Source: Pseudanabaena yagii GIHE-NHR1 (GTDB lineage Bacteria; Cyanobacteriota; Cyanobacteriia; Pseudanabaenales; Pseudanabaenaceae). From it: DNA of 64,000 nucleotides. Positions within the stretch are counted from its first letter, which is position 1; every line of letters starts with the position of its first letter. Under the pieces are notes generated by a model that did not search any database, had not been told where the DNA came from, and worked only from the letters and a program-made list of their open reading frames with translations. This document shows positions 1-24,426 of the stretch, piece after piece. The position numbers and the translations under genes were made by a program. The stretch covers positions 310,001 to 374,000 of the forward strand of contig NZ_JAAVJL010000003.1 in assembly GCF_012863495.1 (NCBI RefSeq), written 5' to 3'.

Positions 1-3000
1 AGTAGTAGCATCTCAGCAGATGTCCAGTAATGGGGTGTCAGTTGGGTTGGGTTAACTCTACCGCGCAAACGCTGCCATTGAGAAAAACTCTTGGGTAACG
101 CTCTATCACTGGGATCATCGCGATCGCTCGCCCAAGTATATAAACCTGATGATGCTTGATTTTGCCAAATCCATTTCAGTGCTTGCCATAGTCGGTCTGG
201 CTGATCGAGCATCACCCATTGATGGGCTTCAGCAATATTAGCTTGCATTGATGGGGTGCTTGGACGAAATGCTCCAGTCTTATCTCGTAAACCTTCCCAA
301 CGTTTTTGAAATACTTGGTTAAGTGCATTGCGATCTCCTTCAGCAATACCACTGGGCCAAAGTCCATCGGTAAAGGCAGAAAATTCAGGTTGGGGAGCTT
401 TTGATTTTGGTTGCTGAGGGGCTGATTGCGTAGATATAGGATTATCTTTTTGCCAAACTGCTTTTAACTTTTCGGCTTGCAATCGCCATAGTTTCGCAGA
501 CTCAGATTGCTTGAGGCGATCAGCTAAAGTAGCTGCATCAAGCAAAGCGCGATAACTAATTACATTAGCTGAAGGATCAATATTAATAGCATTAGGAACG
601 TTTTCCATTTTTCCTGATGAAAGATCAACCCTCACCAATTCAGAGTTTTCGGCGAAGGGGAACTTAGCTGCGCTTAAGATCGGATAACCGGGGCGATTGG
701 TAGCTAACATATCACCGATCAACTTGGCTTTGCGCTGAATATGTGACCATAACCAGCGATCATAGTCAGGCTGCTTGAGGGCGATCGCTACTTCTTCGAG
801 CGCCCAAATCCCTAGTGCAGGAATATCGGCTTCAGGAAGGGTACTATTAATGAAATCATTTTCAGCAAAATAGGGAGATAGTTGCTTAGCTAAATCGAGT
901 TGCCCTGCACGCGCTAGAGCGACCATTTGATAAGCGCCATCACGGAACCGCGATAGGGGATAGCTAACGGGATCGGTTGGGTAGGTGCGGTTTCCAACAA
1001 TTCCCATCGTGAGATGTGCGATCTGAGATTTTAAGCTATCTACAAATTGGGGATCTGGTAAATCTAGGACGAGATTAGATGTGAGTGCGGTCGATGGCGT
1101 TTCTATATCAGCGATCGCCTGATTATCTTCAATGAGCACACTTGCATTGTCACTAGGATTAAGCTCAATGCGAGCATATCCCCAACCATGAGGGTCTTGC
1201 CATTGCGAACGGTTAGATTGCTCACGACTCCATCCTGATGTACTTTCACTACCTAGATATACCTTTGCCTGTTTAGGAATATCTTTAATTACCCAGCGAT
1301 CGCTAATCAGCAGACGATTACCGTTCCAATCAAGGGAGGGAATGGCGGCTCCTGCGGGACCAACACTACGAATTGCGATAACTAGGCGATCGTCAGCACT
1401 AGTTAAGGATTTGAGATTAAGTTGCCAAATTCCTGCTTTGGGTAATGACCAAGATGCTTCGTAGTATTTAGTTTTTGTAAGGATTTTTGGTGCTTTTTGC
1501 GGGGCAAAATCGGTGAATTGCTGTTGAATTTCATTGACGGGAAGGCGATCGCTAGTTGTTTTGATATTTCCTTGGCGATCGACAACCCAAATCGAAACCC
1601 CGAAGCTGCCTGCCTGTGGACTAAAACTGCCACCGATATCATGAAAAGATTTATTGGTCGTAGAGCTGGTGGGACTTGCCAATACGACATGCCCTGCGTT
1701 ACGCAAACCAAAATCGTCAGGACGTAGCTTTATTTGGGCTTCCACTTGCTGCTGGGGCGTGCCATAATTCCAAAGGTTCGCTGCAATAGTAGTAAACTGA
1801 GTGCGGTTATTGATCCCAGCACTGACAATCAGAATCACTGCGAGGATTAGACTGATTATTCGTAGGCGAGTTAGCAGACTAAAAGCAACAACGGTCAGTA
1901 ATAAAGGGATGAAATGCAACGAGTAGATAAATGTTTCATCAGCACCATAGATGCTATGCATTCCAAGCTGAGCTAATAGCGTCAATCCCAGCACAATCCG
2001 TAGCTTGTTATGCTGCTTGATTGTCGCAAATGCCCATAAGCCCAAGCCCAATAAGGCAGTCCAACTGACGATAGCAGCAGTTCCCCACAAACTGCCTGAT
2101 GCTGGAGCCAAAAGATTAGCCTCTATCTTTATCCAGTCAGGACGAATTGCAAAATCCCCAAACTGAGTGGCTGGCATGACCATCGTTTGGTAGAAGAAAG
2201 CACTTAGGAAAGATAAAATACCACCACTAGGCGTAGCAATAAACTTCTTCTCACCAATAAAAGTCCCTGGCTGAAACGGAAATCCAGAATTGGTAAATAC
2301 AATCCGTTGCAAAATCCATAACCCTGTCGCTAGCAGTAAAGAACCGACAAAAATCTGGATTGCTTTTTTCCAGCGATTATTTACCAACGTTGCCAAAATG
2401 CCCACCATTGAGTTAGTAATGGTAATACTCACCGTGATCACATTAATGGCAATATACCAAGCCCCTGTAAACGGACGAAATTGAGCCAGAGTAACAAAAG
2501 CTAAACCTAAAATGAAGGTTAGAGAGGCGAGAGGAAATGACTCAGGAATAATCAGCCAAAAGATCGAAGCCGCACTTACTGCACCAACTAGACTCAGTAA
2601 GGTAGCATCCAGCCGATAGCAACCCATGATTCTAAACAAGGCGTAAAGCGCACCGATCCAAAATGTAGAGACACCAACAGCCACGAGTCTAGCGGCAGCA
2701 AGAGGATCGAGATGAAATAGTTTGCCCGTCAGAAAGACTAGGGGGAAAACGATGAGAGGGAATAGCGGATGTTTGTTATTGCGACCAAAATCACTATTCA
2801 GGCTGGTGAGATTACCAAAAACAGTGGGGATATCTCCACCAAACCAGACATCTTGTGCGTATAAATCAGTAAAAAGAGGTGTAGGAAGCTTATAAGTACC
2901 AATATAGGTTGAAATAGCGATCGCGATCGCTAGTCCTACTATTATGAGAATATCAATTCGATACTGGCGAATAAAGTTTGCTAATGGTGGAGCAAAGTTA

Positions 3001-3026
3001 AAATTAATTGCTTTTAGTTTGTTCAT
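1..3026 (-). CDS. Large membrane protein with C-terminal helical glycosidase-like domain, 3' end missing
   Basis: The frame reads from an ATG at 3026 to the left edge without a stop, so about 1,008 residues are present and the C-terminus is missing. The N-terminal ~430 residues are strongly hydrophobic, with about ten membrane segments in a polytopic GT-C-like layout. The remainder is soluble and contains a stretch (around RFRDGAYQMVALARAG) resembling alpha/alpha-barrel glucoamylase-type domains. The upstream acetyltransferase ends 12 bases before this start, so the two are probably co-transcribed. A role in building or trimming the surface polysaccharide is inferred from context and was not recognised from a named family. 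The fold assignment of the C-terminal part is tentative. Confidence 0.7.
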   Translation of the reverse strand, partial: MNKLKAINFNFAPPLANFIRQYRIDILIIVGLAIAIAISTYIGTYKLPTPLFTDLYAQDVWFGGDIPTVFGNLTSLNSDFGRNNKHPLFPLIVFPLVFLTGKLFHLDPLAAARLVAVGVSTFWIGALYALFRIMGCYRLDATLLSLVGAVSAASIFWLIIPESFPLASLTFILGLAFVTLAQFRPFTGAWYIAINVITVSITITNSMVGILATLVNNRWKKAIQIFVGSLLLATGLWILQRIVFTNSGFPFQPGTFIGEKKFIATPSGGILSFLSAFFYQTMVMPATQFGDFAIRPDWIKIEANLLAPASGSLWGTAAIVSWTALLGLGLWAFATIKQHNKLRIVLGLTLLAQLGMHSIYGADETFIYSLHFIPLLLTVVAFSLLTRLRIISLILAVILIVSAGINNRTQFTTIAANLWNYGTPQQQVEAQIKLRPDDFGLRNAGHVVLASPTSSTTNKSFHDIGGSFSPQAGSFGVSIWVVDRQGNIKTTSDRLPVNEIQQQFTDFAPQKAPKILTKTKYYEASWSLPKAGIWQLNLKSLTSADDRLVIAIRSVGPAGAAIPSLDWNGNRLLISDRWVIKDIPKQAKVYLGSESTSGWSREQSNRSQWQDPHGWGYARIELNPSDNASVLIEDNQAIADIETPSTALTSNLVLDLPDPQFVDSLKSQIAHLTMGIVGNRTYPTDPVSYPLSRFRDGAYQMVALARAGQLDLAKQLSPYFAENDFINSTLPEADIPALGIWALEEVAIALKQPDYDRWLWSHIQRKAKLIGDMLATNRPGYPILSAAKFPFAENSELVRVDLSSGKMENVPNAINIDPSANVISYRALLDAATLADRLKQSESAKLWRLQAEKLKAVWQKDNPISTQSAPQQPKSKAPQPEFSAFTDGLWPSGIAEGDRNALNQVFQKRWEGLRDKTGAFRPSTPSMQANIAEAHQWVMLDQPDRLWQALKWIWQNQASSGLYTWASDRDDPSDRALPKSFSQWQRLRGRVNPTQLTPHYWTSAEMLL

Positions 3027-3038
3027 TTTTACCTGAAG

Positions 3039-3641
3039 TTACTCTCGCATCCTAATCTTTTTAGCAGGTATCCCACCAACAATAGAATAGGGTTCTACAC
3101 TTTTCGTGACAACTGCTCCAGCCCCGATCACCGAGCCTTTACCAATTGTACATCCGTCTAGAATGGTTGCACCTGCTCCAATCCAAACATCATCTTCAAT
3201 GATGATTCCTTTTAAGGTGGGAGTCTGCTGCCTAAATGGAATATTACGATCTTGTAATCCATAGTTAACAGGAACAATAGTTACCTGTGGACCAATCAAG
3301 CAACCATTACCAATAATCAGATCTCCATGTCCATAAAGAACCGTGAATGAGTTTACAAAAGATGAATGTCCAATCTGAATCTTGCCACCATAGGTTCGGA
3401 GGATAGCAAATGAGCTAATTAGAGTATTGTCGCCAATAGTAATTGTGGATTTATCTCCTTCAGATGGATCTGCTTCCAGTGACGCATATTTGCCGACATT
3501 GACATTATTGCCAATAAAAATTTTTTTCTTATTACCACGTATATCTGCCAATATACTTACATCAGCAGATTTACCAATCGCACCTAATCGAGATCTTTGG
3601 TATTGCCAAAAAAGCCACTTCAAAATCAATTTGGGCTTCAT
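3039..3641 (-). CDS. Hexapeptide-repeat (left-handed beta-helix) acyltransferase
   Basis: This 200-residue protein consists largely of imperfect hexapeptide repeats, with isoleucine, valine or leucine every sixth residue from about residue 28 to 190. It ends in the segment GAGAVVTKSVEPYSIVGGIP, typical of WcaF/Maa-type O-acetyltransferases. Such enzymes form trimers and transfer acetyl groups from acetyl-CoA to sugars. The segment DDVWIGAGATILDG precedes the usual end of the helix. It lies in the polysaccharide locus, 12 bases upstream of the large partial membrane protein, and probably acetylates a sugar precursor. Family assignment is firm, substrate unknown. Confidence 0.87.
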   Translation of the reverse strand: MKPKLILKWLFWQYQRSRLGAIGKSADVSILADIRGNKKKIFIGNNVNVGKYASLEADPSEGDKSTITIGDNTLISSFAILRTYGGKIQIGHSSFVNSFTVLYGHGDLIIGNGCLIGPQVTIVPVNYGLQDRNIPFRQQTPTLKGIIIEDDVWIGAGATILDGCTIGKGSVIGAGAVVTKSVEPYSIVGGIPAKKIRMRE

Positions 3642-4913: not shown

Positions 4914-5011
4914 AATAAATATGTTTTGAGTTTACAAAAACAAAAAATACACAAGAAATCTAAAAAATTGACTATCTATTTAGACAAATTAAATAGCTGA
5001 TAAATTAATTA

Positions 5012-5102
5012 TATAGTAATCCTAAATAGTTTGTGGAAGCACAACCCGAAGGGTTGTACTTCCACAAACCCAAAAATCTACAAATGATTTAGGACTGCTA
5101 TA
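5012..5102. repeat. Palindromic TIR element, copy 1 (second copy at 50,692-50,775)
   Basis: The ends are inverted repeats: TATAGTAATCCTAAAT on the left and the near-complement ATTTAGGACTGCTATA on the right (14 of 16 match). Inside is a long hairpin with stem GTGGAAGCACAACCC, loop GAA. The same arrangement in the opposite orientation is found upstream of hisC at about 50.7 kb. It abuts and shares its terminal TATA with the next element. Confidence 0.85.
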
Positions 5103-5214
5103 GCAATGTAAGGTTTACTTAGGACATAAAACCAAAATAAGTGAAGGCGGCACTTCGTGCCGCCTTCACTTATTTTGGTTTTGATTTGTCCTAGCTATCT
5201 CTTACACTGCTATA
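5099..5214. repeat. MITE-like palindromic element with GAA/TTC triloop
   Basis: The whole 116-base element is close to one large inverted repeat bounded by TATAG and CTATA. The perfect inner stem runs through AAGTGAAGGCGGCAC, loop TTC. Its right tail CCTAGCTATCTCTTACA is repeated next to the hairpin at 30.85 kb. With the preceding element it fills the 338-base gap between the GtrA gene and the acyltransferase; no gene is seen there. Confidence 0.8.
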
Positions 5215-5251
5215 TATGTAATTAACTGAAATTCAATAAATTTGTTTCTTG

Positions 5252-5701
5252 CTATTTTTTTGAACTTATTTCTTTGAAAATATAAACTTTACTAATTCCA
5301 TAGGTCACTATAGAAGCAATTAATGACGCAATTATAAAAGCAATAGTATCTCGAAACTGAGCTAGTATAGTTATTGGGAATAGGAGATAACGAATTAATA
5401 GAGAAAACACAATTGTGACTCCCATGCCTAATAGTTGTACAACTGTATAGTAAGAAAATTTATATTTAAATGAACGAGTTTTCTTTTTGTTGTCTTTGAA
5501 TGTAAATCTACTTTGCAAAAAATAACTTAGGATAGTGCCAACTACATACACAATAGCAATAGACATGACATATTCCCAAGCAGAACCATATAAGAACCTG
5601 CCAATAAAATCACGTAGAACAATAGTTACTAAAGTTACAAAACCACCTACTATAAAGTAGATAGGGTATCTAGAAAATATATTAAAAAATTTGCTTTTCA
5701 T
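5252..5701 (-). CDS. GtrA family membrane protein
   Basis: This 149-residue protein has four hydrophobic segments and the GtrA-like layout, with YFIVGGFVTLV in the first segment and a short basic patch (QSRFTFKDNKKKTRSFKYK) near the middle. GtrA proteins are thought to flip polyprenyl-phosphate-linked sugars made by GtrB-type GT2 enzymes. A GtrB-like GT2 is encoded upstream in the same series at 7653-8624. It lies 90 bases after an acyltransferase gene and before the repeat gap. Role in translocating a lipid-linked sugar is inferred. Confidence 0.82.
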   Translation of the reverse strand: MKSKFFNIFSRYPIYFIVGGFVTLVTIVLRDFIGRFLYGSAWEYVMSIAIVYVVGTILSYFLQSRFTFKDNKKKTRSFKYKFSYYTVVQLLGMGVTIVFSLLIRYLLFPITILAQFRDTIAFIIASLIASIVTYGISKVYIFKEISSKK

Positions 5702-5791
5702 TATTTATTGTATTTTGTTATATTGATTTGTGTAACTTCAGTGATTTGTATTAATACCTACTCAAGCAAATAAATATATCTAGTCAATATA

Positions 5792-6898
5792 TTATTTAAC
5801 GAATTTTTGAAGAGATGAGTAGCTTAATAAATGAACAGTCGCCAAAGTAAGAATAATGGTTGGCAATGCATTAAAAACTGCTTGTAAATCAATTGGAAGT
5901 CCCATTATTAATACAGAGTTTGACCATCCTAATATGCTAAATAAATTTACAGTAATGATCGTCAAAATGTATAAGTAGTACTTGTGAATAGCAAAAATAC
6001 CCAAAGAAAACTTCGACAAAAAAATAACAATTTGATTTGATTTTAGAGAATTAATATTGGTACAACTAGTAAAAACTGCTAAAGCTCCACAAACTATTGA
6101 AACTCGAGCATAAAGACCAATATTTACATGATATGACCTCAATAAAACATCTTGGCATCCAAACACAAAAAAGCATAGGTATAGCAATAATACATACTTC
6201 TTTCTGATTCTTTCATTTTGTTGATTAAATAAAAAATAAGCTATTGGAATATAAACAATAAAATTGTCCAATCTCCAATAAGCTATATATGTTCCTGTAA
6301 CATTTAATATTTCAAAATAGACTAGGGATAATACGATTAATGATAAAGCTATATTGTTTTTAATGTTGTGTGATTTAATTTTCAAAAAATAATAGGTCAT
6401 TACTGTTAAAACAATAAGAACAACTATAAAGTAAAACACTGAATCACCAACTATAGGTAATGGTGGAGAAGTTCCAGATAACAATTGGTATATTTGAAGA
6501 TTAGGTATGTACCAAGAAAAAGTTGTATGTGACCATAGCGATTGTATAAATGATATGCAGTAGTAAATAGAAATATGTATAGTTGTCCAAAAAACAAATA
6601 TCTCAAACAAACGCTTACATCTATTTATACAATATTCAATACCTGTAGATTGCAATTTTGCTATTAACAAAAATAAAGATGTTAAAATAAATAAAGGTAC
6701 TGCTAATGGGGTTGATATTAAATATATTTGATCGAGAATAAAATTTGCAATCCCAGAATAACCTAATGTATCTTCACTAATTATACGTACTGGTCTTATA
6801 TGTAAGATCAACACAAGACAAATACTGATTGCTTTTATAAGATCTAATCTAGTGTCTCTATGCTTATTATCTATTTTTTCTGTGTTTGACATATTCAT
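5792..6898 (-). CDS. Acyltransferase-3 family membrane protein
   Basis: This 368-residue polytopic protein has about ten membrane segments. Its N-terminal motif reads RLDLIKAISICLVLILH, keeping the histidine of the OafA-type signature, while the usual first arginine is lysine. It would transfer acetyl or another acyl group to an extracytoplasmic sugar. It follows the methyltransferase gene by 50 bases in the leftward series. It is a different branch from the other acyltransferase at 3756-4913. Substrate unknown. Confidence 0.78.
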   Translation of the reverse strand: MNMSNTEKIDNKHRDTRLDLIKAISICLVLILHIRPVRIISEDTLGYSGIANFILDQIYLISTPLAVPLFILTSLFLLIAKLQSTGIEYCINRCKRLFEIFVFWTTIHISIYYCISFIQSLWSHTTFSWYIPNLQIYQLLSGTSPPLPIVGDSVFYFIVVLIVLTVMTYYFLKIKSHNIKNNIALSLIVLSLVYFEILNVTGTYIAYWRLDNFIVYIPIAYFLFNQQNERIRKKYVLLLYLCFFVFGCQDVLLRSYHVNIGLYARVSIVCGALAVFTSCTNINSLKSNQIVIFLSKFSLGIFAIHKYYLYILTIITVNLFSILGWSNSVLIMGLPIDLQAVFNALPTIILTLATVHLLSYSSLQKFVK

Positions 6899-6948
6899 AT
6901 TTAGGTTGTATTTGGATTATCAAAATGTAATATTAAGCTTTAATTTAA

Positions 6949-7656
6949 TCAAGCAGATTTTTTGCCTATTAGTAAAACTGACTTCCCTAAACTGTAGAAA
7001 ATCAATGGATCAATTTTTCTGGATATAGGAACCATAAAATTATCCCAAAATTGGATCTGTTTTAGTGACGGTGTTCTTTGTTTTAAGAATAATTTGTTAA
7101 CAATATTTGCTATCAATCCAACGCAATCTAAATAAATTAACTTTGTGATTTCAATATTATGTGGCAAGATTTTTCTTATCATTGATTTGTTGTAACGACG
7201 ATAATGACCAATACTAGAATCGAATGAGGAAAAAAGGCATTGATGAGCTGGACTTAAAACAATCAAGCTACCATTAGTATTTAATAACTGAGTAGCTTTA
7301 ATAAGTTCTGAGTTATCTTTGTATATGTGTTCTAATACATCTATGTATAAGATTGAATCAAATAAAATATTTTTCTCAAGATTATTAATAGTTCCATTTA
7401 GAAAATTATGTTTAGTTGACTGAGATAAATTAAAGTTTAATTTTAAAACTTGTAAAAGAGCATCATCTGGTTCTAAACATAACCATTTATAGTATTGGCA
7501 ATTTAAAAACATAGTAGTGTTATTCCCTATGCCTGCACCAACCTCTAATACATAACCATGAATAAACTCGGCTATTAAAAACTTTATATAATTTTTCCAA
7601 TTAGTTGCTTGAGCAAAACCATCTAATTCTTTGCCAATGTATTTAAAGTTAATCAT
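6949..7656 (-). CDS. Class I SAM-dependent methyltransferase
   Basis: This 235-residue soluble protein has SAM-binding motif I at YVLEVGAGIGNNT (about residues 35-47) and an acidic residue after the second strand (CLEPDD). A DSILYIDVLEHI segment corresponds to motif II/post-II. It resembles methyltransferases that sit beside GtrB-like glycosyltransferases. The start codon overlaps the stop of the GT2 gene by 4 bases, so the two are translationally coupled. Substrate may be a lipid-linked sugar or a polysaccharide end group; this is inference. Confidence 0.85.
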   Translation of the reverse strand: MINFKYIGKELDGFAQATNWKNYIKFLIAEFIHGYVLEVGAGIGNNTTMFLNCQYYKWLCLEPDDALLQVLKLNFNLSQSTKHNFLNGTINNLEKNILFDSILYIDVLEHIYKDNSELIKATQLLNTNGSLIVLSPAHQCLFSSFDSSIGHYRRYNKSMIRKILPHNIEITKLIYLDCVGLIANIVNKLFLKQRTPSLKQIQFWDNFMVPISRKIDPLIFYSLGKSVLLIGKKSA

Positions 7657-8624
7657 GATTTTATCGACAAAAAACTATCAATGAAGTATTTATAATCACG
7701 GATAGGAATGAAGTTAGAGCTATTACGTGTAGATAGAATAATCATACTAAAGATAATTCCTGTAAGTACAAGCTGAAATAAAGTTAAAATTATAAAGCCA
7801 AATACGTTAGTAGCCCAACCTGGTATTGCTAAGTTTGTGCCAAATTTAACTACTATAGTGATAAGCAACACTAGCAATGCGATGGCTAATAGGGTAACAA
7901 CAACCATTAAAATTCTCGTCCCTACAACATCACCATACACAGCGATCGAGCTTAGCCCATGTGTTACGAGCGATACAAGATTCATTTTCGGCTGACCAGC
8001 TAATCGCCTTGCTCTAGGTATAGCTACTTCAATATAGGGGATGCGAGAGCGCTGAATACTTGATGAATAGTGATTCCAAATTCCTGAGATAACTACTATA
8101 TTTTTTAATATTGAATAAGGAATTAAACTGAAATTACCAAAACTTATTTCTTTCCCTACAAGTAATCGATAAATCCTCTTGTAAATTGAGTAAAATGTTT
8201 TGAATGTGAAATTTTCAGATCGTTTGCTTCGCTTAGCAAAAATAATTTTATTTTGATCTGTTTTGTCAAAGATATTGAGCAAGTTGTCGATTTCAAAAGG
8301 ATTATCTTCTCCATCTCCATCCATGACAATAACTAAGTCTGTGGATAATTTTTGATATATGTGGCACAGACCGACAGCGATCGCTCTTTGATGACCAAGG
8401 TTGCAGCGTAGTCTAAGAATATTAACAGCTTGAATTTGATGGTACTGCTGATTAGCCAAAGATGTTGGTATTGGAGCTGTTGAATAGTCATCAACAATGA
8501 CTATTTCTAAGTTCACTGCTTGAGTAAACTTTACTTCATCAATCAAAGGAAGCAATATCTCTAAAGCTTCCCAGTCATTGAACGATGGAATAAGTACGAT
8601 TAATTTCTTTATTGTATTACTCAT
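7653..8624 (-). CDS. GtrB-like family 2 glycosyltransferase (polyprenyl-phosphate sugar synthase type)
   Basis: This 323-residue protein has an N-terminal GT-A domain with the nucleotide-binding segment IVIVDDYST and the metal-binding segment VMDGDGEDNP (about residues 99-108). Two C-terminal membrane helices follow (about 235-300), as in GtrB/DPM-like enzymes. Such enzymes load a sugar from an NDP donor onto undecaprenyl phosphate. It lies 5 bases after a GT-C gene and overlaps the next methyltransferase gene. Together with GtrA and two GT-C proteins it suggests a lipid-linked sugar route: synthesis, flipping, then transfer outside. Confidence 0.88.
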   Translation of the reverse strand: MSNTIKKLIVLIPSFNDWEALEILLPLIDEVKFTQAVNLEIVIVDDYSTAPIPTSLANQQYHQIQAVNILRLRCNLGHQRAIAVGLCHIYQKLSTDLVIVMDGDGEDNPFEIDNLLNIFDKTDQNKIIFAKRSKRSENFTFKTFYSIYKRIYRLLVGKEISFGNFSLIPYSILKNIVVISGIWNHYSSSIQRSRIPYIEVAIPRARRLAGQPKMNLVSLVTHGLSSIAVYGDVVGTRILMVVVTLLAIALLVLLITIVVKFGTNLAIPGWATNVFGFIILTLFQLVLTGIIFSMIILSTRNSSNFIPIRDYKYFIDSFLSIKS

Positions 8625-8629
8625 TATCT

Positions 8630-10177
8630 TTATCCTTCTTGCTGTAGTTTATTAGATATATCTGAATCTAGAAGTTTTTTTGACCTTCTAATTTGTTGTA
8701 GGAAGTAATTTTTTATTGAATCTGGATTAGTAAAATATACAATCATGATTATTCCAATTAATCGATGAAAACTAATGGGAAAAATATCAAAAGTAGGTAC
8801 ACAAAAAACTAAGAAAATGCCAATTGCTACTGGTATAGGTTTATCTGATCTTCTCGTTATAATCGCCCATAGTGCTACTGGAATTGCAACAATATAATGA
8901 TGTTCATAAACTGATGGTGAAATTAATAGACCTAATGCAATAGCGTCCATAGAATGCCCGTAGAATCTAAATGCCTCATCCCAACTATCTGGACTTTCCG
9001 CGATCGTATATTGCCCTAATTCTTTATAAATTTTTTCTCTCTGAATAAACCGAATAGTGAACCAAACTAAAATTCCTAATGTAATTAGAGTAACAATAAT
9101 TGGAACAATATCAAAAGAAGTATTGTTTAATTTATTAGGTATCTTAAAGAAGTTATAAATTACGCTGTTAATACTATTGTTTCGGTAAGGAGTTGGCTTG
9201 CTGACATTTTTCATGTAATCCAGAAAATACTTTATTAATGTCCAGTCTCGCCCAAAATTTGTCTGTAATATAGCAATAGCACCTATGCCGATAGATGTTG
9301 CTATAAGAAGTAGCCATCTTCTCATAGCAATCCAAGGAAGAATTAAAATGAATGGATATAGCTTAATGTGAATCCCAAGTGCTACAGCAAATCCACTAAT
9401 GAATGGATAGCTTCTTTGGACAAGAAATGCAACTAGAAAACAGTTTAATATCCACAGATTGGTTTGATGAAAATTTAAAGTTCTAAGAACTGAGTTATTA
9501 AATAAAAATAGTGATGCAACAATTATAGAAGCAGGAATCGAGCCTAAATTCATTCTTCTAGCGAATTCATAGGTTAGGTAATAAGCTAAAATAACTAGTA
9601 GAAACTGACAACATTGAAACAGATAAAAAATTATTTGCCAACCTTGATCGTCATTATCAATAGGTAGGAATGGTATGTGAGTTACTATGGGATGTATGAA
9701 TGCCATTACCTGTCCTACTAAAGGTGGATAGACATAAGGAGTATCCTGATTGATGTATGGATTAATTCCATTAACTATCGCCTTAGCTCCAAGTTCAAAA
9801 GCAATATAATCCGATTTAAATCTCCAATCAAAAGTTGATTCGGAAATATTAAAAAGAAAATTCAAACTTACCAATAGTCCTGCTATCGGTGGAAATATTT
9901 CTTTTAAGCTTTTATATCCTCTTTTTTTGATTTCAAACCAAGTAATCAAGGCAATAGTAAATGAGGCTAGTCCTCCGAATATTTCAAATGGCATTCCATT
10001 TAATCTTGTAAAGTTTAGAAATGGTGCTGCATTTATCTTTCTTAAGTGCCAAAAGAAAAGTGGTAACAAGACAATGATTGCTAACAGTAAAGAATAAATC
10101 AGTAGAGAGGGTATGTAATTTGTGAATCTATGTAATTGAGATGTACTTTTATAATCATCTAATTGTTTGTTTGTCAT
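8630..10177 (-). CDS. GT-C fold membrane glycosyltransferase (DUF2029/GT87-like), copy 1
   Basis: This 515-residue polytopic protein has about twelve hydrophobic segments. Early conserved elements are NPYI and YVYPPL; a first-loop acidic residue (KSDYIAFELG) fits a GT-C active site. Later motifs are GIHIKLYPFILILPW, YRNNSI and YEHHY. The family includes mannosyl- and arabinosyl-transferases using polyprenyl-phosphate sugars. It is clearly paralogous to the next upstream gene (10279-11724), sharing these motifs in the same order. It lies only 5 bases before the GT2 gene. Sugar and acceptor unknown. Confidence 0.83.
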   Translation of the reverse strand: MTNKQLDDYKSTSQLHRFTNYIPSLLIYSLLLAIIVLLPLFFWHLRKINAAPFLNFTRLNGMPFEIFGGLASFTIALITWFEIKKRGYKSLKEIFPPIAGLLVSLNFLFNISESTFDWRFKSDYIAFELGAKAIVNGINPYINQDTPYVYPPLVGQVMAFIHPIVTHIPFLPIDNDDQGWQIIFYLFQCCQFLLVILAYYLTYEFARRMNLGSIPASIIVASLFLFNNSVLRTLNFHQTNLWILNCFLVAFLVQRSYPFISGFAVALGIHIKLYPFILILPWIAMRRWLLLIATSIGIGAIAILQTNFGRDWTLIKYFLDYMKNVSKPTPYRNNSINSVIYNFFKIPNKLNNTSFDIVPIIVTLITLGILVWFTIRFIQREKIYKELGQYTIAESPDSWDEAFRFYGHSMDAIALGLLISPSVYEHHYIVAIPVALWAIITRRSDKPIPVAIGIFLVFCVPTFDIFPISFHRLIGIIMIVYFTNPDSIKNYFLQQIRRSKKLLDSDISNKLQQEG

Positions 10178-10278
10178 TATAGAATTTATATCTAGTAGCT
10201 TTCTAATGGTTTATTGTTGTTGATGTGCGTACAAAAAACAAAATATTTTAAGTTTAAGTTGAAATTATTAATGATTCG

Positions 10279-11724
10279 TTATGTATTAGACTTCAAGACG
10301 AAATAATTTTTCAGAAAATTCGGATTCGTGAAGTAAACAAGTATTGATAAGCCTAGTAATCTATGGAAGCTGAATGGAAATATTTCACTGGTAGGCATAC
10401 AAAAAACTAGAAAGACACCACAGTATACTGCTAGAGAATGTTCAGTCCTATGAGTTATAACTGCCCATAATGCCAATGGTATGGCAATTACATAGTGATG
10501 TTCCCATACAGATGGGGAAATTAGAAGAATAAATGCGATCGCATCAATTGAGTTTCCATAAAGATAAAAAATTTCAGCAATATCATTCTTTATGATTTTA
10601 TCATAAATTTGTTTGCGTTGAATAAATCGAATAATAAACCACACAGAGACTAAAAAAGTCAATATAGTAACAACTATAGGAACAAGCTTAAAAAGTATAT
10701 CTAAATGCAAAACCTTATTAGGTATTTTAACCAAGTTAAATACTAAACTCCATATAGAATTGTTTCTATAATTAGTTGGCTTCTCAGGGTTACTAAGATA
10801 TGAAAAAAATTGAGACCATAGACTCCAATCATTAAACCAATTTGTTTGAACTGAGACAATGGCTATAACTCCTACAAATGTCCCAATGATAGCTTTCCAT
10901 CTTTTGGTCGCAATCCAAGGGAGTAATAGAACTAGGTTATAAAGCTTTATATGCGTACCTAAAGCAATAGCAAGCCCACTCAAAAATGGGTAGCGCCTAA
11001 GTAAAAGAATACCTAGTAGAAATGAGTTAAGAATCCATAAATTTATTTGATCAAATGTTATGGTTCTAACAAGGGGATAATTAAATAAAAAAATGCCTGA
11101 AATCAAAAATGATCCTGTCAGTTTTTTGATTTTTAGATCCTGTACGAATAGAAAGGTCAAATAGTAAGCTAGGGCTATTTGTAAAAACTGAGCGCACTGA
11201 TAAATGTAAGAAACAGCAGTCCAAGCTTTAATATCATCCGCGAAGGCAAATATAGGGTTATAGACTAAAAATTGGTATAGATATGAGAGAATTTGTGCTG
11301 ATAGAGGTGGATATAGGTAGCAGGGAGGAGTTCCAGTATAAGGATTAGCGGCATTAATAATTGCTCTGGCAGCATTTTCATAACACATGAAATCACTGCT
11401 TTTTACATGAACAGTTTCAACCAAAATAAAGAGATTATTTAAAAGAACTAGCACTGGCAAGACAATAGGAACTATTGTGGATATGCTTTTATTCTTTTGC
11501 TGCTTTATTTGTAGCCATGCTATGAATACGAGAATTATTGTAGTAAAGAAACCAAAAATTTCAAAAGGTTGACTATCAATTGTATTAGGAGCGCTTCCGT
11601 CATAGGTGGATTCAATGATTGGCAGCCTCAATTTCCAAATTATCAGTGGTAGTATAATTGTTGCTACTAATACTAGAAAAGAGGACAAGGCAAATTGTAA
11701 TTTTATGATTACACTCTTATTCAT
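10279..11724 (-). CDS. GT-C fold membrane glycosyltransferase (DUF2029/GT87-like), copy 2
   Basis: This 481-residue protein is a paralogue of the gene at 8630-10177, with the same motif order: NPYTG, YLYPPLSAQ, LGTHIKLYNLVLLLPW, YRNNSI and WEHHY. The acidic residue in KSSDFMCYENA occupies the likely GT-C catalytic loop. It is separated from its paralogue by about 100 AT-rich bases. The tandem pair probably arose by duplication and may add two related sugars or build a repeating linkage. Codon use is AT-rich like the surrounding genes. Confidence 0.82.
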   Translation of the reverse strand: MNKSVIIKLQFALSSFLVLVATIILPLIIWKLRLPIIESTYDGSAPNTIDSQPFEIFGFFTTIILVFIAWLQIKQQKNKSISTIVPIVLPVLVLLNNLFILVETVHVKSSDFMCYENAARAIINAANPYTGTPPCYLYPPLSAQILSYLYQFLVYNPIFAFADDIKAWTAVSYIYQCAQFLQIALAYYLTFLFVQDLKIKKLTGSFLISGIFLFNYPLVRTITFDQINLWILNSFLLGILLLRRYPFLSGLAIALGTHIKLYNLVLLLPWIATKRWKAIIGTFVGVIAIVSVQTNWFNDWSLWSQFFSYLSNPEKPTNYRNNSIWSLVFNLVKIPNKVLHLDILFKLVPIVVTILTFLVSVWFIIRFIQRKQIYDKIIKNDIAEIFYLYGNSIDAIAFILLISPSVWEHHYVIAIPLALWAVITHRTEHSLAVYCGVFLVFCMPTSEIFPFSFHRLLGLSILVYFTNPNFLKNYFVLKSNT

Positions 11725-11857
11725 GATTCTTACCTGTTTAGGGAGATATTAATAGTAACATACATAAATCATAAATACATCGGCAAAATAACAGGCAATT
11801 TGCAAATTTATCCGTCCTTTTTAATTTGTCAGGCTAATTTCCAAAGTACTGCCTCTA

Positions 11858-12196
11858 TCAACTAATTTTTCCTAAGGCGATCGCTGAAATTCCACTCAAC
11901 ATTAGTCCAATCCCAAACCATTGAACAGTTGCCACCTTTTCTCCTAATAAAAAAGCTCCTGTCACTGTTGTTGCCAAAACCGTTAAACCAATGATGACTG
12001 GATAAGCGACAGAGAGATTAAACTTACCTAAAACCACAATGTAAAATACTGTACTCAACCCGTAAGCAGTTAACCCTCCTAATAAATAGAAATTCAATGG
12101 ATTTTGACCAGAACCTAACTTAAGCAGTGCTTGGGCTATGGTATTTAGACCTACTGTAATTAAAATAAGTATTGATGAAATAAGAAAACTTTGCAT
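11858..12196 (-). CDS. Small multidrug resistance (SMR)/EamA-like membrane protein
   Basis: This 112-residue protein has four membrane helices. The segments AQALLKLGSG, PVIIGLTVLATTVTGAFLLGE and WFGIGLMLSGISAIAL are SMR-like. SMR-fold proteins include drug exporters and ArnE/ArnF-type flippases for undecaprenyl-phosphate aminoarabinose. It lies 21 bases downstream of the HAD phosphatase and near the UbiA gene, so a flippase for a polyprenyl-linked sugar is a reasonable inference. A general drug/quaternary-amine exporter is the alternative. Confidence 0.8.
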   Translation of the reverse strand: MQSFLISSILILITVGLNTIAQALLKLGSGQNPLNFYLLGGLTAYGLSTVFYIVVLGKFNLSVAYPVIIGLTVLATTVTGAFLLGEKVATVQWFGIGLMLSGISAIALGKIS

Positions 12197-12217
12197 AATT
12201 TACCAAAAAAGGACAGT

Positions 12218-12739
12218 CTATTTTTTATTGTGAATTGATGATTGGAAATCCCAAAGTTCAATTTGTTTGGGATAAGGTGTTTGCACATATTTACCTAATA
12301 GCTTTTCCCACCAGCGAGGTGGATGTGGGAGAGAGGCAACTTGAATGCTTCGACAACCCGATAGCCAAGCACCAAAAACATCTGTATGCCGACTATCGCC
12401 AATTACAACAACTTGTTTTGATGATAGTTGCATATGCTTCATCGCTTTGCGAAAAGCACTAGGAAATGGTTTCTTAGCTGGACTAATTGCAGGTATATTG
12501 AGATGATGCGACCAATATTCCACGCGATAACGCCTTTTGCCATTTGACAAAAAGAAAAATTGAAATTCTAAATCCTTTGCCTGTGCAATCCAATCTTCGG
12601 CATGAGGAGATAGATAGCGATCATCCTCAGAAACGATAGTGTTATCTAGATCGAGGATAACTCCCTTGATTCCCAAAGATACTAAACGATTAAGATCAAT
12701 AGAAGCCAAAGTATCAGCCTTGCTTGGAAAGGAAGTCAT
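12218..12739 (-). CDS. YqeG-type HAD family IIIA phosphatase
   Basis: This 173-residue protein carries HAD motif I as DLDNT (Asp30 nucleophile, Asp32), motif II around FFLSNGKR, and motif III-like residues in AKKP followed by GDSRHTD. The YqeG/GEP4 family includes phosphatidylglycerophosphate phosphatases. Position matters: the gene directly follows the UbiA-type phosphoribosyl-polyprenyl-phosphate synthase, whose product needs dephosphorylation in the mycobacterial pathway. It could therefore act on that lipid, but a housekeeping phosphatidylglycerophosphatase role is equally open. Confidence 0.85.
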   Translation of the reverse strand: MTSFPSKADTLASIDLNRLVSLGIKGVILDLDNTIVSEDDRYLSPHAEDWIAQAKDLEFQFFFLSNGKRRYRVEYWSHHLNIPAISPAKKPFPSAFRKAMKHMQLSSKQVVVIGDSRHTDVFGAWLSGCRSIQVASLPHPPRWWEKLLGKYVQTPYPKQIELWDFQSSIHNKK

Positions 12740-12792
12740 TGTTTAACCTGTTGATTATTTATATTTAAATAAAATTTATATCTCACAAAGTT

Positions 12793-13806
12793 TTAAGTAA
12801 TAAATCCGTATTTTTTCAAAACTAGAATGCCAAATGTTATAGCAACCCAAGTTAATACGGTTAGTAAGATCGGTTGATCATTTAGCAAGACTTCTTCTGG
12901 GCGCTCAGTTTGACCACCTACCTCGTTATCAGAATTGCGTCGAGCAATCTCTTGGGGATCACTTAACAACTGATAGCGAAAAACACCATACATGACAAAG
13001 GGTAATGTGATAAGCATCCATGATGTTGAGGCTCCACGTACAATCGGTCCAGAACTCCAAAGGGCATAGGTAATGATTGTTCCATTAGTTGCTACGGTTT
13101 CCATCCGATTCAATAGTGATAGAGAATAGCGTTGGAGGACAGCACGGGATTTCTTGCCCCTTAGTTCTGATAATCTCAGCTCAGCTTTGCGCTTTTCAAT
13201 GCCTAAAAAAAGAGCAAGCATGGCAGTACAAAGGATGAACCATGAAGATAGGATGATCCCTGTAGCCGCAGCGCCAGCACAGGCTCTTAAAATAAAACCG
13301 ATCGAAATGGCAACGACATCTAGAATGACAGTACGTTTGAGGCGGAGATTATAGGCAACTTGAAGAAGTGCATAACTTAAAATAGCTAAACCTAATCCTG
13401 AGTCCCGCCACCAACTGATAGCTAGAGCCGATAATAGAAAAGTTACTGCCATAGCGATCGCTGTTGGCACAGCAACTAATCCAGAAGCGATCGGACGTTT
13501 TGATTTAACTGGATGTTGGCGATCGGACTTTACGTCAAGAATATCGTTAATCAGGTAAAAACTACTGGACGTAGCACAAAAAAGGCAAAAGGCTAGTAGT
13601 CCACCCCATAAGGACTTGGTGGTAATTTCAAAGGCAAAAAGAGGAGCTGCAAATACAACTAAGTTCTTAGTCCACTGCTTAGGACGCAATGCTTTCAAAT
13701 GGGCAGAAAATAACTTTAAACTTGATGCTTTGGGCATTTTTGGGGGATGACTTACGGTTAAGTCTTCGTCAAATTCTAGATTTTGCTCTTCTTTTTCGAT
13801 TGCCAT
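12793..13806 (-). CDS. UbiA-family decaprenyl-phosphate phosphoribosyltransferase-like protein
   Basis: This 337-residue membrane prenyltransferase-fold protein has the first metal/diphosphate motif NDILDVKSDRQHP (Asn87, Asp88, Asp91, Asp95, His98) followed by KSKRPIASG, and a second region reading ILRACAGAAATG and LFLGIEKRKAELR. These are hallmarks of the DPPR synthase branch (mycobacterial Rv3806c), which moves phosphoribose from PRPP to decaprenyl phosphate, rather than of quinone-forming UbiA. A quinone-type UbiA is separately present at 47.7-48.6 kb. A charged ~35-residue N-terminal extension precedes the first helix. Confidence 0.85.
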   Translation of the reverse strand: MAIEKEEQNLEFDEDLTVSHPPKMPKASSLKLFSAHLKALRPKQWTKNLVVFAAPLFAFEITTKSLWGGLLAFCLFCATSSSFYLINDILDVKSDRQHPVKSKRPIASGLVAVPTAIAMAVTFLLSALAISWWRDSGLGLAILSYALLQVAYNLRLKRTVILDVVAISIGFILRACAGAAATGIILSSWFILCTAMLALFLGIEKRKAELRLSELRGKKSRAVLQRYSLSLLNRMETVATNGTIITYALWSSGPIVRGASTSWMLITLPFVMYGVFRYQLLSDPQEIARRNSDNEVGGQTERPEEVLLNDQPILLTVLTWVAITFGILVLKKYGFIT

Positions 13807-15140: not shown

Positions 15141-16271
15141 TTAGCTAGGCTTTTTAGTCTGCAATAATCCTTTACGCTCCATCTCTTTCAAAGATGCTTG
15201 CAAAACTTCTGGATTAAGTGGTTCTTGATGAAGATACCAATCTAGATATTGGGATAAACCATCCTTGAGAGATGTAGGTTGCCATTCGCCCAATTGAGTC
15301 TCATAGTGGCTCATATCAGCAACCGCATGGCGAATATCACCCACACGGAAACGTCCTGAGATCTTATACTCTGCTTTCTTATTTAAAAGTTGAGCGATCG
15401 TTTCAACAACATCAATTAACGTCACTGCCTTGCCACTACCGACATTAATCGTGGTGTTCAAAGTCTTTTCGGTAATGATCGATTTCACAACAGCATCAGC
15501 AATATCGCCAACAAATACAAAATCTCGTGTCACTAATCCATCTTCAAACAGTTCCAATGGACTTCCTTGAGAGATCGCATTGGTAAAAATACCAATAATG
15601 CCAGTATAGGGATTCCCTAACTCTTGTTTGGGACCATATACATTCTGAAAGCGCAACGTTACTAAATCGATCGCTTGACTCTCGCAATAAATTTCTAATA
15701 GTTGCTCTTGCCATAGTTTAGTTAATCCATACACAGAGGTAGGTTTGGTGAGATAGGTTTCTCGCATTGGCAAAGGCTGCAAAATCTCCCCTTCAGGACT
15801 ACAAACCTCCCAGATGCCACGTTGTAGATTTTCTAGGAATCTTCCCTTAGGGTAAAGCACTGACTTGCCGTCAGTGTAAGCGCCATCACCATAGACGGCA
15901 CGGCTTGAGGATAAAACTACACGGCGCGGTTTGTGATTAAGAGAGGAGATTAGCTCCAATAGTTTCGCTGTACCATTAGCATTGTCCTGTACATAGCGGC
16001 TAATTTCGTACATTGACTGTCCAGTACCAGTTTGGGCCACTAAATGAACAACGACATCAGTACCTTCAATTATCTCTTTGTAATTAGCAATGTCTTGGAT
16101 ATCTGCTTTAATACATTGAGCACGAGCTTTAATTTCTGGAGCGAAATCCTGTGACTTAGTATGAACCTGAGGATCTAGAGAATCGAGAACTATGACCTCA
16201 AATTCAGGTGGGATCTTTTCAATCAACCACTTGCCAATAAAACCTGCTCCACCAGTAATGAGGATCTTCAT
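15141..16271 (-). CDS. NAD-dependent sugar epimerase/dehydratase (extended SDR)
   Basis: The protein has the Rossmann motif GGAGFIG at its N-terminus and the catalytic YGLTK (Y-x3-K) after PTSV. The long insert with YGDGAY and EGEILQPLPMRETY resembles dTDP-L-rhamnose 4-epimerase-like SDRs. I start it at the second methionine (16271, 376 residues), because AGGAAG lies 7 bases upstream of that ATG but only one base from the ATG at 16277. It lies 30 bases before the GT4 gene. It likely makes an unusual deoxysugar for the polysaccharide; exact reaction uncertain. Confidence 0.87.
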   Translation of the reverse strand: MKILITGGAGFIGKWLIEKIPPEFEVIVLDSLDPQVHTKSQDFAPEIKARAQCIKADIQDIANYKEIIEGTDVVVHLVAQTGTGQSMYEISRYVQDNANGTAKLLELISSLNHKPRRVVLSSSRAVYGDGAYTDGKSVLYPKGRFLENLQRGIWEVCSPEGEILQPLPMRETYLTKPTSVYGLTKLWQEQLLEIYCESQAIDLVTLRFQNVYGPKQELGNPYTGIIGIFTNAISQGSPLELFEDGLVTRDFVFVGDIADAVVKSIITEKTLNTTINVGSGKAVTLIDVVETIAQLLNKKAEYKISGRFRVGDIRHAVADMSHYETQLGEWQPTSLKDGLSQYLDWYLHQEPLNPEVLQASLKEMERKGLLQTKKPS

Positions 16272-16338
16272 AAACATACTTCCTGTGAGTTAATATTTTG
16301 GGGGGACTTTAGATAGGCAGCATCCCTATCTATTTTGG

Positions 16339-18372: not shown

Positions 18373-18425
18373 AAAAAGTAAGGAGGTTGAGTTTGTCTTT
18401 ACCAAACTCAACCTCCTTACTTTTT
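18373..18425. terminator. Perfect 23-bp inverted repeat with 7-base loop
   Basis: The arms 18373-18395 and 18403-18425 are perfect complements, beginning AAAAAGTAAGGAGG and separated by TCTTTAC. The right arm contains the last codons and stop of the epimerase gene at 18417. An 11-base piece of the right arm (CAAACTCAACC) occurs again just left at 18362-18372. With A/T tracts on both ends it could terminate transcription in either direction. Confidence 0.8.
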
Positions 18426-19613: not shown

Positions 19614-19681
19614 TATAGTGTTTCTCAGTCTAATGAAGTACTGGTTTGTGGAAACAACCTTCTGTACTGTGCTGTGCTATA
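19614..19681. repeat. Degenerate copy of TATAGxGTTT palindromic element
   Basis: The left end (TATAGTGTTTCTCAGTCTAA) matches the left end of the element at 31263 at most positions, over about 35 bases. The right end is GCTATA, which supplies the stop codon (reverse strand TAG at 19677-19679) of the GMC oxidoreductase gene. The central hairpin is eroded. Confidence 0.6.
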
Positions 19682-24420: not shown

Positions 24421-24426
24421 TTGCAT

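What the first reader, a model, noticed from the sequence alone, without database searches (positions are those of the whole stretch)
8630..13806. Possible cyanobacterial polyprenyl-phosphate pentose (DPR/DPA-like) module
A UbiA homologue of the phosphoribosyl-polyprenyl-phosphate branch (NDILDVKSDRQHP, then KSKRPIASG) is followed within 21-133 bases by a HAD phosphatase, an SMR-type transporter and two GT-C glycosyltransferases. In mycobacteria the analogous steps are phosphoribosyl transfer, dephosphorylation, flipping and use by GT-C arabinosyltransferases. The gene order here gives synthase, candidate phosphatase, candidate flippase and candidate users. The mycobacterial epimerising pair DprE1/DprE2 is not recognised; the SDR at 18417 and the GMC oxidoreductase at 19677 are possible but unproven replacements, or ribose itself could be the sugar used. 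I know of no characterised cyanobacterial pathway of this kind.
Basis: partly seen in the sequence, partly recalled or inferred. Interest (0 to 1): 0.62.

Follow-up and report, generated by a model that had tools for sequence, protein, structure and literature searches.

The report
Cyanobacterial lipid-linked ribose donor module
Three neighbouring genes in this cyanobacterium probably make a ribose bound to a membrane lipid and carry it across the membrane, to be hung on surface sugars; similar but differently built sets are known from other bacteria.

Summary
The genes are real and correctly placed. UbiA (12793-13806) is a polyprenyl-phosphate phosphoribosyltransferase homologue, not a quinone or chlorophyll synthase. 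The HAD is not the sole phosphatidylglycerophosphatase candidate but a second, specialised YqeG-family copy. UbiA, HAD and SMR recur as a module: of 388 genomes of the class, 39 carry this HAD, 37 of them also the close UbiA, 36 side by side. In 21 genomes DprE1 lies on a UbiA contig instead (G060 at a second locus); no UbiA place has both. The window's genome has no DprE1, so the likeliest product is polyprenyl-phosphate-ribofuranose, not arabinose. This is a new variant of the Citrobacter three-component pentofuranose systems (PMC11127046), with a separate YqeG-type phosphatase and an SMR-like protein instead of MATE. D-ribofuranose side groups are reported for Nostoc polysaccharide (PMC5635763, passage). 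A better candidate user is a GT-C-like protein at 1-3026, whose family recurs at 20 of 46 other HAD loci. Reactions are inferred.

The parts
12793..13806 (-). UbiA-family polyprenyl-phosphate phosphoribosyltransferase (DPPR/PPPR synthase homologue), 337 aa
   Evidence: NF008978 260 bits over cut-off 207; phmmer to PDB 8j8j E 3.3e-43, residues 32-324; N87 D88 D91 D95 H98 R104 K205 R206 identical in 75 of 75 rows including the 8j8j row and two duplicate loci, E209 in 73 of 75
12218..12739 (-). YqeG-family HAD phosphatase paralogue, 173 aa; candidate 5'-phosphatase of the UbiA product
   Evidence: TIGR01668 167 bits, cut-off 89; D30, D32, N66, K90, D115, D120 in 49 of 49 rows, the own core copy among them; model pLDDT 85, VIA-align Z up to 12.8 to HAD-family structures
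11858..12196 (-). SMR-like membrane protein with four predicted helices, 112 aa; candidate flippase
   Evidence: PF00893 over cut-off; best NCBIfam model ArnE but under its cut-off, 34.6 of 92 bits; N18, Q22, K26, E86 in 45 of 45 rows and no Asp/Glu at residues 5-28 of any row; in 35 of 41 other UbiA-HAD loci
1..3026 (-). GT-C-like protein with a soluble C-terminal part of about 650 residues (W3), 1105 aa; begins at 3026, its last 291 bases lie beyond the window edge (L193:7710-11027); candidate user of the lipid-linked pentose
   Evidence: full length; 10 predicted helices in the 1008 residues inside the window; no Pfam match; family members at 20 of 46 other YqeG-HAD loci, 2 of 4 SMR-only loci and 1 of 15 DprE1 loci
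3039..3641 (-). hexapeptide acyltransferase (HexAT), next to the GT-C-like gene; role in the module inferred from neighbourhood only
   Evidence: PF00132; beside W3 in L135, L136, L137, L139, L140 and L184
3756..11724 (-). low-GC insert, probably a separate hexose cassette between SMR and HexAT, not part of the pentose module: acyltransferase 3756-4913, GtrA-like 5252-5701, acyltransferase 5792-6898, methyltransferase 6949-7656, GtrB/ArnC-like GT2 7653-8624, GT87 8630-10177, GT87 10279-11724
   Evidence: GC 27.3-34.3% per gene against 39.7, 41.9 and 44.6% for HAD, UbiA and W3; L135-L137 have one acyltransferase in its place; GT87b found at E 1e-30 in 1 of 38 relatives, the genome itself; PF04138, PF00535, PF09594, PF01757, PF08242

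Best explanation
A three-step donor module for adding a pentofuranose outside the cytoplasm. UbiA transfers 5-phosphoribose from PRPP to a polyprenyl phosphate in the inner leaflet (homology and active-site residues shown; activity inferred). The YqeG-type HAD removes the 5'-phosphate to give polyprenyl-phosphate-ribofuranose (catalytic residues and near-constant adjacency shown; substrate inferred). The SMR-like protein flips the lipid-linked ribose to the outer leaflet (adjacency and absence of a first-helix acidic residue shown; transport inferred). A GT-C enzyme, most likely the protein at 1-3026, adds the ribofuranose to a surface polysaccharide made by the surrounding cluster (family recurrence shown; GT-C nature and reaction inferred). 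With no DprE1 in the genome, ribofuranose is the likeliest final sugar.
For: UbiA: NF008978 over cut-off while chlorophyll, quinone and haem O synthase models score 15.6-25.3 bits; PDB 8j8j over residues 32-324, which PMC11127046 names as the M. tuberculosis enzyme; the loop II residues tested in that paper (N, D, D, D) identical in 75 of 75 rows; the three other own UbiA-family rows that entered the tree sit on very long branches. HAD: the own genome has another YqeG copy at C1:14239-14544, 31% identical, and 239 of 244 genomes of the phylum sample have a YqeG-type match; the special copies are one side of a branch (98) against only 4 core rows. Module: 37 of 39 genomes with the HAD have the close UbiA, 36 adjacent on one strand with gaps of 11-913 bases; SMR in 35 of 41 other UbiA-HAD loci; no DprE1 in any of those 41 and no YqeG-type HAD at the 10 close-UbiA loci with DprE1; own genome without a DprE1 match at E 1e-20. 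Replacement: 7 of the 10 close-UbiA DprE1 loci carry a HAD of another type, in 6 of them fused to an LPG_synthase_TM membrane domain, the seventh cut by the end of the stretch; others carry a HAD-UbiA fusion. So a phosphatase, often with a membrane protein that could flip, recurs in unrelated forms. Precedent: a HAD-UbiA fusion makes farnesyl-phosphate-ribofuranose in vitro (PMC11127046 section 7). Product: D-ribofuranose pendant groups are stated for released polysaccharide of Nostoc commune and other Nostoc (PMC5635763, passage citing earlier work); a Nostoc spongiaeforme genome carries UbiA-HAD-SMR and the GT-C-like gene in a row (L079).
Against: No biochemistry. Two genomes have HAD and SMR without a UbiA hit (G254, G426; 87-88% complete), and 10 of 41 genomes with the SMR have no UbiA match listed. 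In 6 of 41 UbiA-HAD loci no SMR lies in the fetched stretch, though G342 has one on another contig. At several close-UbiA loci (G377, G387, G454, G482 and a second one of G326) neither this HAD nor another HAD motif was found in the fetched stretch; 3 of the 10 DprE1 loci also show none. 26 of 46 HAD loci have no member of the W3 family in the fetched stretch, and the 46 are not independent (G439 alone gives three). A GalE-like epimerase gene lies two genes upstream. B. subtilis YqeG hydrolysed GMP and G6P only at high concentration (PMC5080769 section 6), which says little about a lipid substrate.
Confidence: 0.68

Rival explanations
1. The lipid-linked ribose is epimerised before flipping, by the GalE-like SDR EpiA at 15141-16277 (to xylofuranose, as ORF13 does in Citrobacter O2) or by the GMC oxidoreductase with the SDR at 18417 (to arabinofuranose), so the donor is not ribose.
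For: EpiA is two genes upstream of UbiA and has TGxxGxxG and YxxxK motifs, the marks that PMC11127046 gives for ORF13 (section 11); the order GMC, SDR, GfoIdh, Rha305, EpiA, GT4, UbiA is kept in three sister loci. The GMC protein resembles pyranose oxidase, far under that model's cut-off.
Against: Among 41 UbiA-HAD loci GMC occurs in 4 (one a 191-aa fragment), SDR in 4 (one at 24% identity) and EpiA in 4 (one at 23%), the three sisters each time among them. EpiA stays under every equivalog cut-off, with the best scores to GalE and dTDP-glucose dehydratase, so a nucleotide-sugar substrate is as likely.
Confidence: 0.16
2. The HAD is a lipid phosphatase unrelated to UbiA, for instance a second phosphatidylglycerophosphatase, kept near UbiA by chance or co-regulation.
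For: The HAD matches PF09419, mitochondrial PGP phosphatase, and the genes for PGP phosphatase in cyanobacteria are called not fully revealed (PMC8124801 introduction, passage).
Against: A separate core copy exists, and in the class sample the special copy goes with the close UbiA in 37 of 39 genomes; at several loci without it an unrelated HAD type is present.
Confidence: 0.07
3. SMR and the GT87 genes serve a polyprenyl-phosphate hexose made by the neighbouring GtrB/ArnC-like GT2, and UbiA with HAD act in another pathway.
For: GT2, GtrA-like and two GT87 genes stand together downstream; GT87b matches a mannosyltransferase structure, 9dm5, at E 2.3e-4.
Against: SMR stays with UbiA-HAD in 35 of 41 other loci, whereas GT87-like genes were labelled at only three of the mapped HAD loci (L062, L169, L184); the insert has its own GtrA-like gene.
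Confidence: 0.08

Closest known systems
Three-component pentofuranose systems of Citrobacter youngae O1/O2 (PMC11127046; seen: outline with abstract, passages, sections 7 and 11, first of two parts of section 12)
   Same: UbiA-type phosphoribosyltransferase, HAD phosphatase, candidate flippase and GT-C enzyme in one cluster; no DprE1/DprE2 needed for ribose
   Different: There the HAD (PRP) is the N-terminal domain of the UbiA protein, the flippase is MATE-family and the GT-C is GT136; here the HAD is a separate YqeG-family protein, the transporter-like protein is SMR-like, and the GT-C-like candidate matches no Pfam family
Mycobacterial decaprenyl-phosphoryl-arabinose pathway (Rv3806c, Rv3807c, DprE1/DprE2, Rv3789; as told in PMC11127046)
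   Same: UbiA enzyme homologous to PDB 8j8j with the same active-site residues; dephosphorylation and flipping expected next
   Different: Phosphatase Rv3807c is unrelated to HAD-family PRPs, DprE1 has no match in this genome, and Rv3789, called SMR in the paper, is recalled as GtrA-like
YqeG family, HAD-IIIA (TIGR01668), with the core cyanobacterial copy
   Same: Over the family's cut-off, HAD catalytic residues kept
   Different: A second copy, 31% identical to the genome's core copy, tied to UbiA
ArnE/ArnF flippase and GtrA-GtrB-GT-C systems (biology recalled; models)
   Same: Small multi-helix protein proposed to move a polyprenyl-phosphate sugar; lipid-linked donor used outside the cytoplasm
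   Different: ArnE model far under its cut-off; the donor synthase is UbiA-type, not GT2-type

Membership tests
Polyprenyl-phosphate phosphoribosyltransferase (DPPR/PPPR synthase) | Score over a curated equivalog cut-off, and better than quinone, chlorophyll and haem O synthase models | tested here: met
   NF008978 260 bits, cut-off 207 (two sister models NF008977 and NF008976 stay under their cut-offs); ChlG 24.7, haem O 25.3, UbiA 23.9 bits
Polyprenyl-phosphate phosphoribosyltransferase (DPPR/PPPR synthase) | Active-site residues N, D, D, D of loop II and R, E of loop IV (PMC11127046 section 7) | tested here: met
   N87 D88 D91 D95 and R206 in 75 of 75 rows, E209 in 73 of 75
Polyprenyl-phosphate phosphoribosyltransferase (DPPR/PPPR synthase) | Transfer of phosphoribose from PRPP to polyprenyl phosphate | not testable with these tools
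   needs an enzyme assay
Three-component pentofuranose system (Citrobacter type) | HAD phosphatase fused to the UbiA protein | tested here: not met
   separate genes 53 bases apart; HAD is TIGR01668 YqeG
Three-component pentofuranose system (Citrobacter type) | MATE-family flippase in the module | tested here: not met
   the adjacent transporter-like protein is SMR-like; no Pfam scan of the genes from 1 to 30388 listed a MATE family; the rest of the genome was not scanned for MATE
Three-component pentofuranose system (Citrobacter type) | GT-C enzyme of family GT136 | tested here: inconclusive
   W3 has no Pfam match, its family no PDB sequence match and no meaningful NCBIfam match; no GT136 sequence was compared
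Mycobacterial DPA pathway | DprE1 oxidase in the genome | tested here: not met
   no match to a cyanobacterial DprE1-like protein at E 1e-20 in the own genome, while 23 of 388 genomes have one
YqeG / PGP-phosphatase-like HAD | Over the TIGR01668 cut-off with HAD catalytic residues | tested here: met
   167 bits, cut-off 89; residues
YqeG / PGP-phosphatase-like HAD | Being the genome's only YqeG-type gene, as expected of a housekeeping PGP phosphatase | tested here: not met
   second copy at G000:C1:14239-14544
SMR drug exporter | Conserved glutamate in the first helix (E14 of EmrE, recalled) | tested here: not met
   no Asp or Glu at residues 5-28 in any of 45 rows
ArnE flippase subunit | NCBIfam NF011625 cut-off | tested here: not met
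   34.6 bits, cut-off 92, though the best-scoring NCBIfam model
GT87 | PF09594 cut-off for the proteins at 10279-11724 and 8630-10177 | tested here: met
   70.5 and 72 bits, cut-off 25

The most novel reading that the evidence does not exclude
Cyanobacteria carry an independently assembled polyprenyl-phosphate-ribofuranose pathway: a phosphatidylglycerophosphatase-like HAD was recruited as the phosphoribose phosphatase, a glutamate-less SMR-like protein became the pentose-lipid flippase, and an undescribed GT-C family (W3/GTCx, some members with a large soluble tail) places ribofuranose on exopolysaccharide, for instance the ribofuranose side groups of Nostoc polysaccharide. The same UbiA enzymes are combined in other strains with DprE1/DprE2 and a HAD-membrane-protein fusion, so the pentose of the coat is switched by module exchange.
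Probability: 0.5. Interest if true: 0.63.

Novelty: new variant of a known kind. Interest (0 to 1): 0.54.

Why it matters
Cyanobacterial exopolysaccharides contain ribose, arabinose and xylose (PMC4390846, passage), and released Nostoc polysaccharide is described with D-ribofuranose pendant groups (PMC5635763, passage). My searches of the held open-access library showed no paper on how such a residue is made in cyanobacteria. This module gives a specific, testable route, a likely substrate for an orphan YqeG-family HAD, a candidate SMR-type lipid flippase, and a GT-C-like family without a Pfam name. The contrast between DprE1-type and YqeG-HAD-type loci offers a genomic marker to predict arabinose or ribose in a strain's coat.

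Tried and rejected
Sole PGP phosphatase: rejected, core copy elsewhere. UbiA as quinone or chlorophyll synthase: rejected. GMC/SDR as a general DprE replacement: not supported outside three sisters. GT87 pair as the main users: weakened. Structure of the GT-C-like protein: AlphaFold2 with three rows gave pLDDT 40, not used. The profile of its family found no PDB sequence, no meaningful NCBIfam model and no real alignment with GT87b. The HAD model matches very many HAD structures about equally (Z 11.8-12.8 in the 50 rows shown), so it says nothing on substrate. SMR had no PDB sequence match at E 10. Plasmids: no match to the HAD at 1e-15.

Weak points of my own counts. The UbiA tree is a quick tree with long branches: the place of the 8j8j row among DprE1-type rows is not trusted, and one own paralogue (L195) fell out because my script picked no usable frame. 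In the HAD tree 20 of 23 loci with core-type copies were dropped because my script did not find the DLDNT motif at the locus centre; the 4 core rows are the other 3 plus the own copy. The gene caller missed UbiA in L068; the caller mended this. L078 and L084 come from one MAG.

Papers: searches, all of the held open-access library. 'DprE1' with 'cyanobacteri' gave 4 papers, by title on drug discovery or sulfatases, not opened. One search was too loose (5,073 papers, 15 listed) and not used. Subscription papers could not be searched; the original Nostoc polysaccharide paper is not held, and I know it only through the passage.

Full report
OBSERVATION. The window is from a 5.57 Mb genome (G000, contig 3). 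All genes named in the finding are open and lie where stated on the minus strand. One search assigns UbiA to NF008978 (decaprenyl-phosphate phosphoribosyltransferase, 260 bits, cut-off 207) and HAD to TIGR01668 (YqeG family, 167 bits, cut-off 89). One search assigns the small membrane protein to PF00893 (SMR, 31.7 bits, cut-off 23.7) and both large membrane proteins to PF09594 (GT87).

WHAT THE UbiA PROTEIN IS. It aligns over residues 32-324 with PDB 8j8j at E 3.3e-43, the M. tuberculosis enzyme according to PMC11127046. The four loop II residues that the Citrobacter study tested (N, D, D, D) are identical in all 75 aligned rows, the loop IV R in 75 and the E in 73. Models for chlorophyll, quinone and haem O synthases score 15.6-25.3 bits. 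The genome has five UbiA-family places, this one included; the three paralogues that entered the tree stand on very long branches.

WHAT THE HAD PROTEIN IS. It is not the only one of its family. In 244 genomes of the phylum 239 have a YqeG-type match; the own genome has two, the window copy and one at C1:14239-14544 with 31% identity. Only 7 of the 244 have a copy at least 53% identical to the window's, and in all 7 it lies beside the close UbiA. In 388 genomes of the class 39 carry it; 37 of these carry the close UbiA, 36 of them side by side on one strand with 11-913 bases between. The exceptions are G444 (different contigs) and G254 and G426 (no UbiA hit, 87-88% complete genomes). The catalytic residues are intact in 49 of 49 rows, the own core copy among them. 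The AlphaFold2 model (pLDDT 85) is an ordinary HAD fold.

THE SMR-LIKE PROTEIN. The genome has one copy. Of 60 distinct fetched loci with a close UbiA (the window not counted), 41 have the HAD, and 35 of these 41 also the SMR. In 45 rows there is no acidic residue at residues 5-28, where drug-exporting SMR proteins have their essential glutamate (recalled), while N18, Q22, K26 and E86 never vary. In a 291-genome sample 41 genomes have it; 10 of them have no UbiA match listed, so it is not exclusive to the module.

TWO TYPES OF LOCUS. Some relatives of the same UbiA lie beside an oxidase and a reductase that resemble DprE1 and DprE2. The pair of L067 scores 448 bits with the NCBIfam DprE1 model (cut-off 500, best match) and 184 bits with DprE2 (cut-off 250; a general SDR model scores higher, 308), so both stay under those cut-offs. 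In the class sample a DprE1 match of 44% identity or more occurs in 22 of 388 genomes (a 23rd, G185, matches at 33% over part); 21 of the 22 have a UbiA homologue on the same contig, and G143 has none. No UbiA place has both the YqeG-type HAD and DprE1 on its contig. None of the 41 HAD loci has DprE1, and none of the 10 close-UbiA DprE1 loci has the YqeG-type HAD. The single genome with both, G060, keeps DprE1 and DprE2 at a second locus beside another, longer UbiA protein (L187, 507 aa). Of 15 fetched DprE1 loci 14 hold a DprE2-like gene (44-100% identical in nine, 34-35% in five; L167 has none). Seven of the 10 close-UbiA DprE1 loci carry a HAD of another type; in six it is fused to an LPG_synthase_TM membrane domain and in L175 the stretch ends within the gene. 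L075 has a HAD-UbiA-type protein over the cut-off of NF006088. L173 and L174 have a stand-alone HAD of PF12710 type (L083 is the same locus as L174). Thus phosphatase and putative flippase recur in unrelated forms, which supports the two roles and suggests that YqeG-HAD loci stop at ribose. Exceptions without any recognised HAD in the fetched stretch are given under evidence against.

THE USERS. They sit in a stretch (3756-11724) whose seven genes have 27.3-34.3% GC against 39.7-44.6% for HAD, UbiA and W3. In three sister loci (L135, L136, L137) one acyltransferase stands in its place. GT87b has no homologue at E 1e-30 in 37 other relatives. The stretch also holds a GT2 protein nearest to the PgfS and ArnC models (both under cut-off) and a GtrA-like protein, so it may be a complete hexose cassette of its own. 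It is not without parallels: a GT87a relative (60%) stands next to W3 in G439 (L184), and weaker ones lie near the module in L062 and L169. A better candidate user is the protein at the left window edge (W3, 1105 aa, completed in L193): about ten helices, then a long soluble part, no Pfam match. Its family occurs at 20 of 46 other YqeG-HAD loci, 2 of 4 SMR-only loci, 1 of 15 DprE1 loci and 1 of 12 remaining loci; many stretches are cut by contig ends. Other loci have other multi-helix proteins in that place, and some none. That W3 is a GT-C enzyme rests on helix number and on conserved Asp and His residues near the start (D58, D64, H85 in L079 numbering), not on a family or fold match.

MECHANISM. 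PRPP + polyprenyl phosphate to polyprenyl-phosphate-5-phosphoribose (UbiA), to polyprenyl-phosphate-ribofuranose (HAD), flipping (SMR), transfer to surface glycan (GT-C). Shown: homology, residues, co-occurrence. Inferred: every reaction, the lipid, the sugar, the acceptor. A close precedent is the Citrobacter system, where a HAD-UbiA fusion makes farnesyl-phosphate-ribofuranose in vitro (PMC11127046 section 7). Side groups are what a three-component system adds, and a Nostoc spongiaeforme genome has the module with a W3-family gene behind it (L079). Because of this fact I raised the confidence from 0.66 to 0.68 and the interest from 0.52 to 0.54, and lowered the epimerase rival from 0.17 to 0.16. 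The strain whose polysaccharide was analysed was not shown to carry the module.

DISTRIBUTION. The module is patchy: within the own genus 4 genomes have a UbiA match and 20 listed ones have none, the list being cut there. That fits an accessory coat decoration, not a housekeeping pathway. The HAD was not found on plasmids of PLSDB.

VERDICT. New variant of a known kind. The module is well supported, its chemistry is untested.

Noticed in passing
window 3756-11724: Low-GC insert with two GT87, a GtrB/ArnC-like GT2, a methyltransferase, a GtrA-like and two acyltransferase genes, absent from three sister loci; looks like a separate lipid-linked hexose cassette.
   Followed up: partly
window 5128-5182: Perfect 26-base inverted repeat with a 3-base loop between the GtrA-like gene and the next acyltransferase gene, possibly a terminator or a mobile-element remnant.
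   Followed up: no
L175-L179 (five genomes of family f20, 2.1-3.0 Mb): DprE1-like and DprE2-like genes with UbiA and a HAD protein, in four of the five shown to be fused to an LPG_synthase_TM domain; an arabinose-type lipid-linked pathway in small-genome cyanobacteria.
   Followed up: partly
L078, L081, L083: A gene of 211-233 aa that reads like a class I methyltransferase (not scanned) sits between or just after UbiA and the HAD, and no SMR is recognised there; a methylated pentose is possible.
   Followed up: no
G439 contigs C44, C49, C153 (L183, L184, L163): One genome has three copies of the special HAD, each with the SMR-like gene.
   Followed up: no
window 24421-25215: WecG/TagA/CpsF glycosyltransferase on the plus strand; homologues stand a short way upstream of UbiA in L138, L141, L143, L144 and L145.
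   Followed up: partly
L193:2573-4300 (left of the window): An open frame of 575 aa whose first residues read like the FAD-binding start of the GMC oxidoreductase at 19677-21311; not scanned.
   Followed up: no
G249, G251, G254, G268, G354, G359, G382, G399, G426, G449: 10 of 41 genomes with the SMR-like protein have no UbiA match listed; unexplained, may serve another lipid-linked sugar.
   Followed up: no
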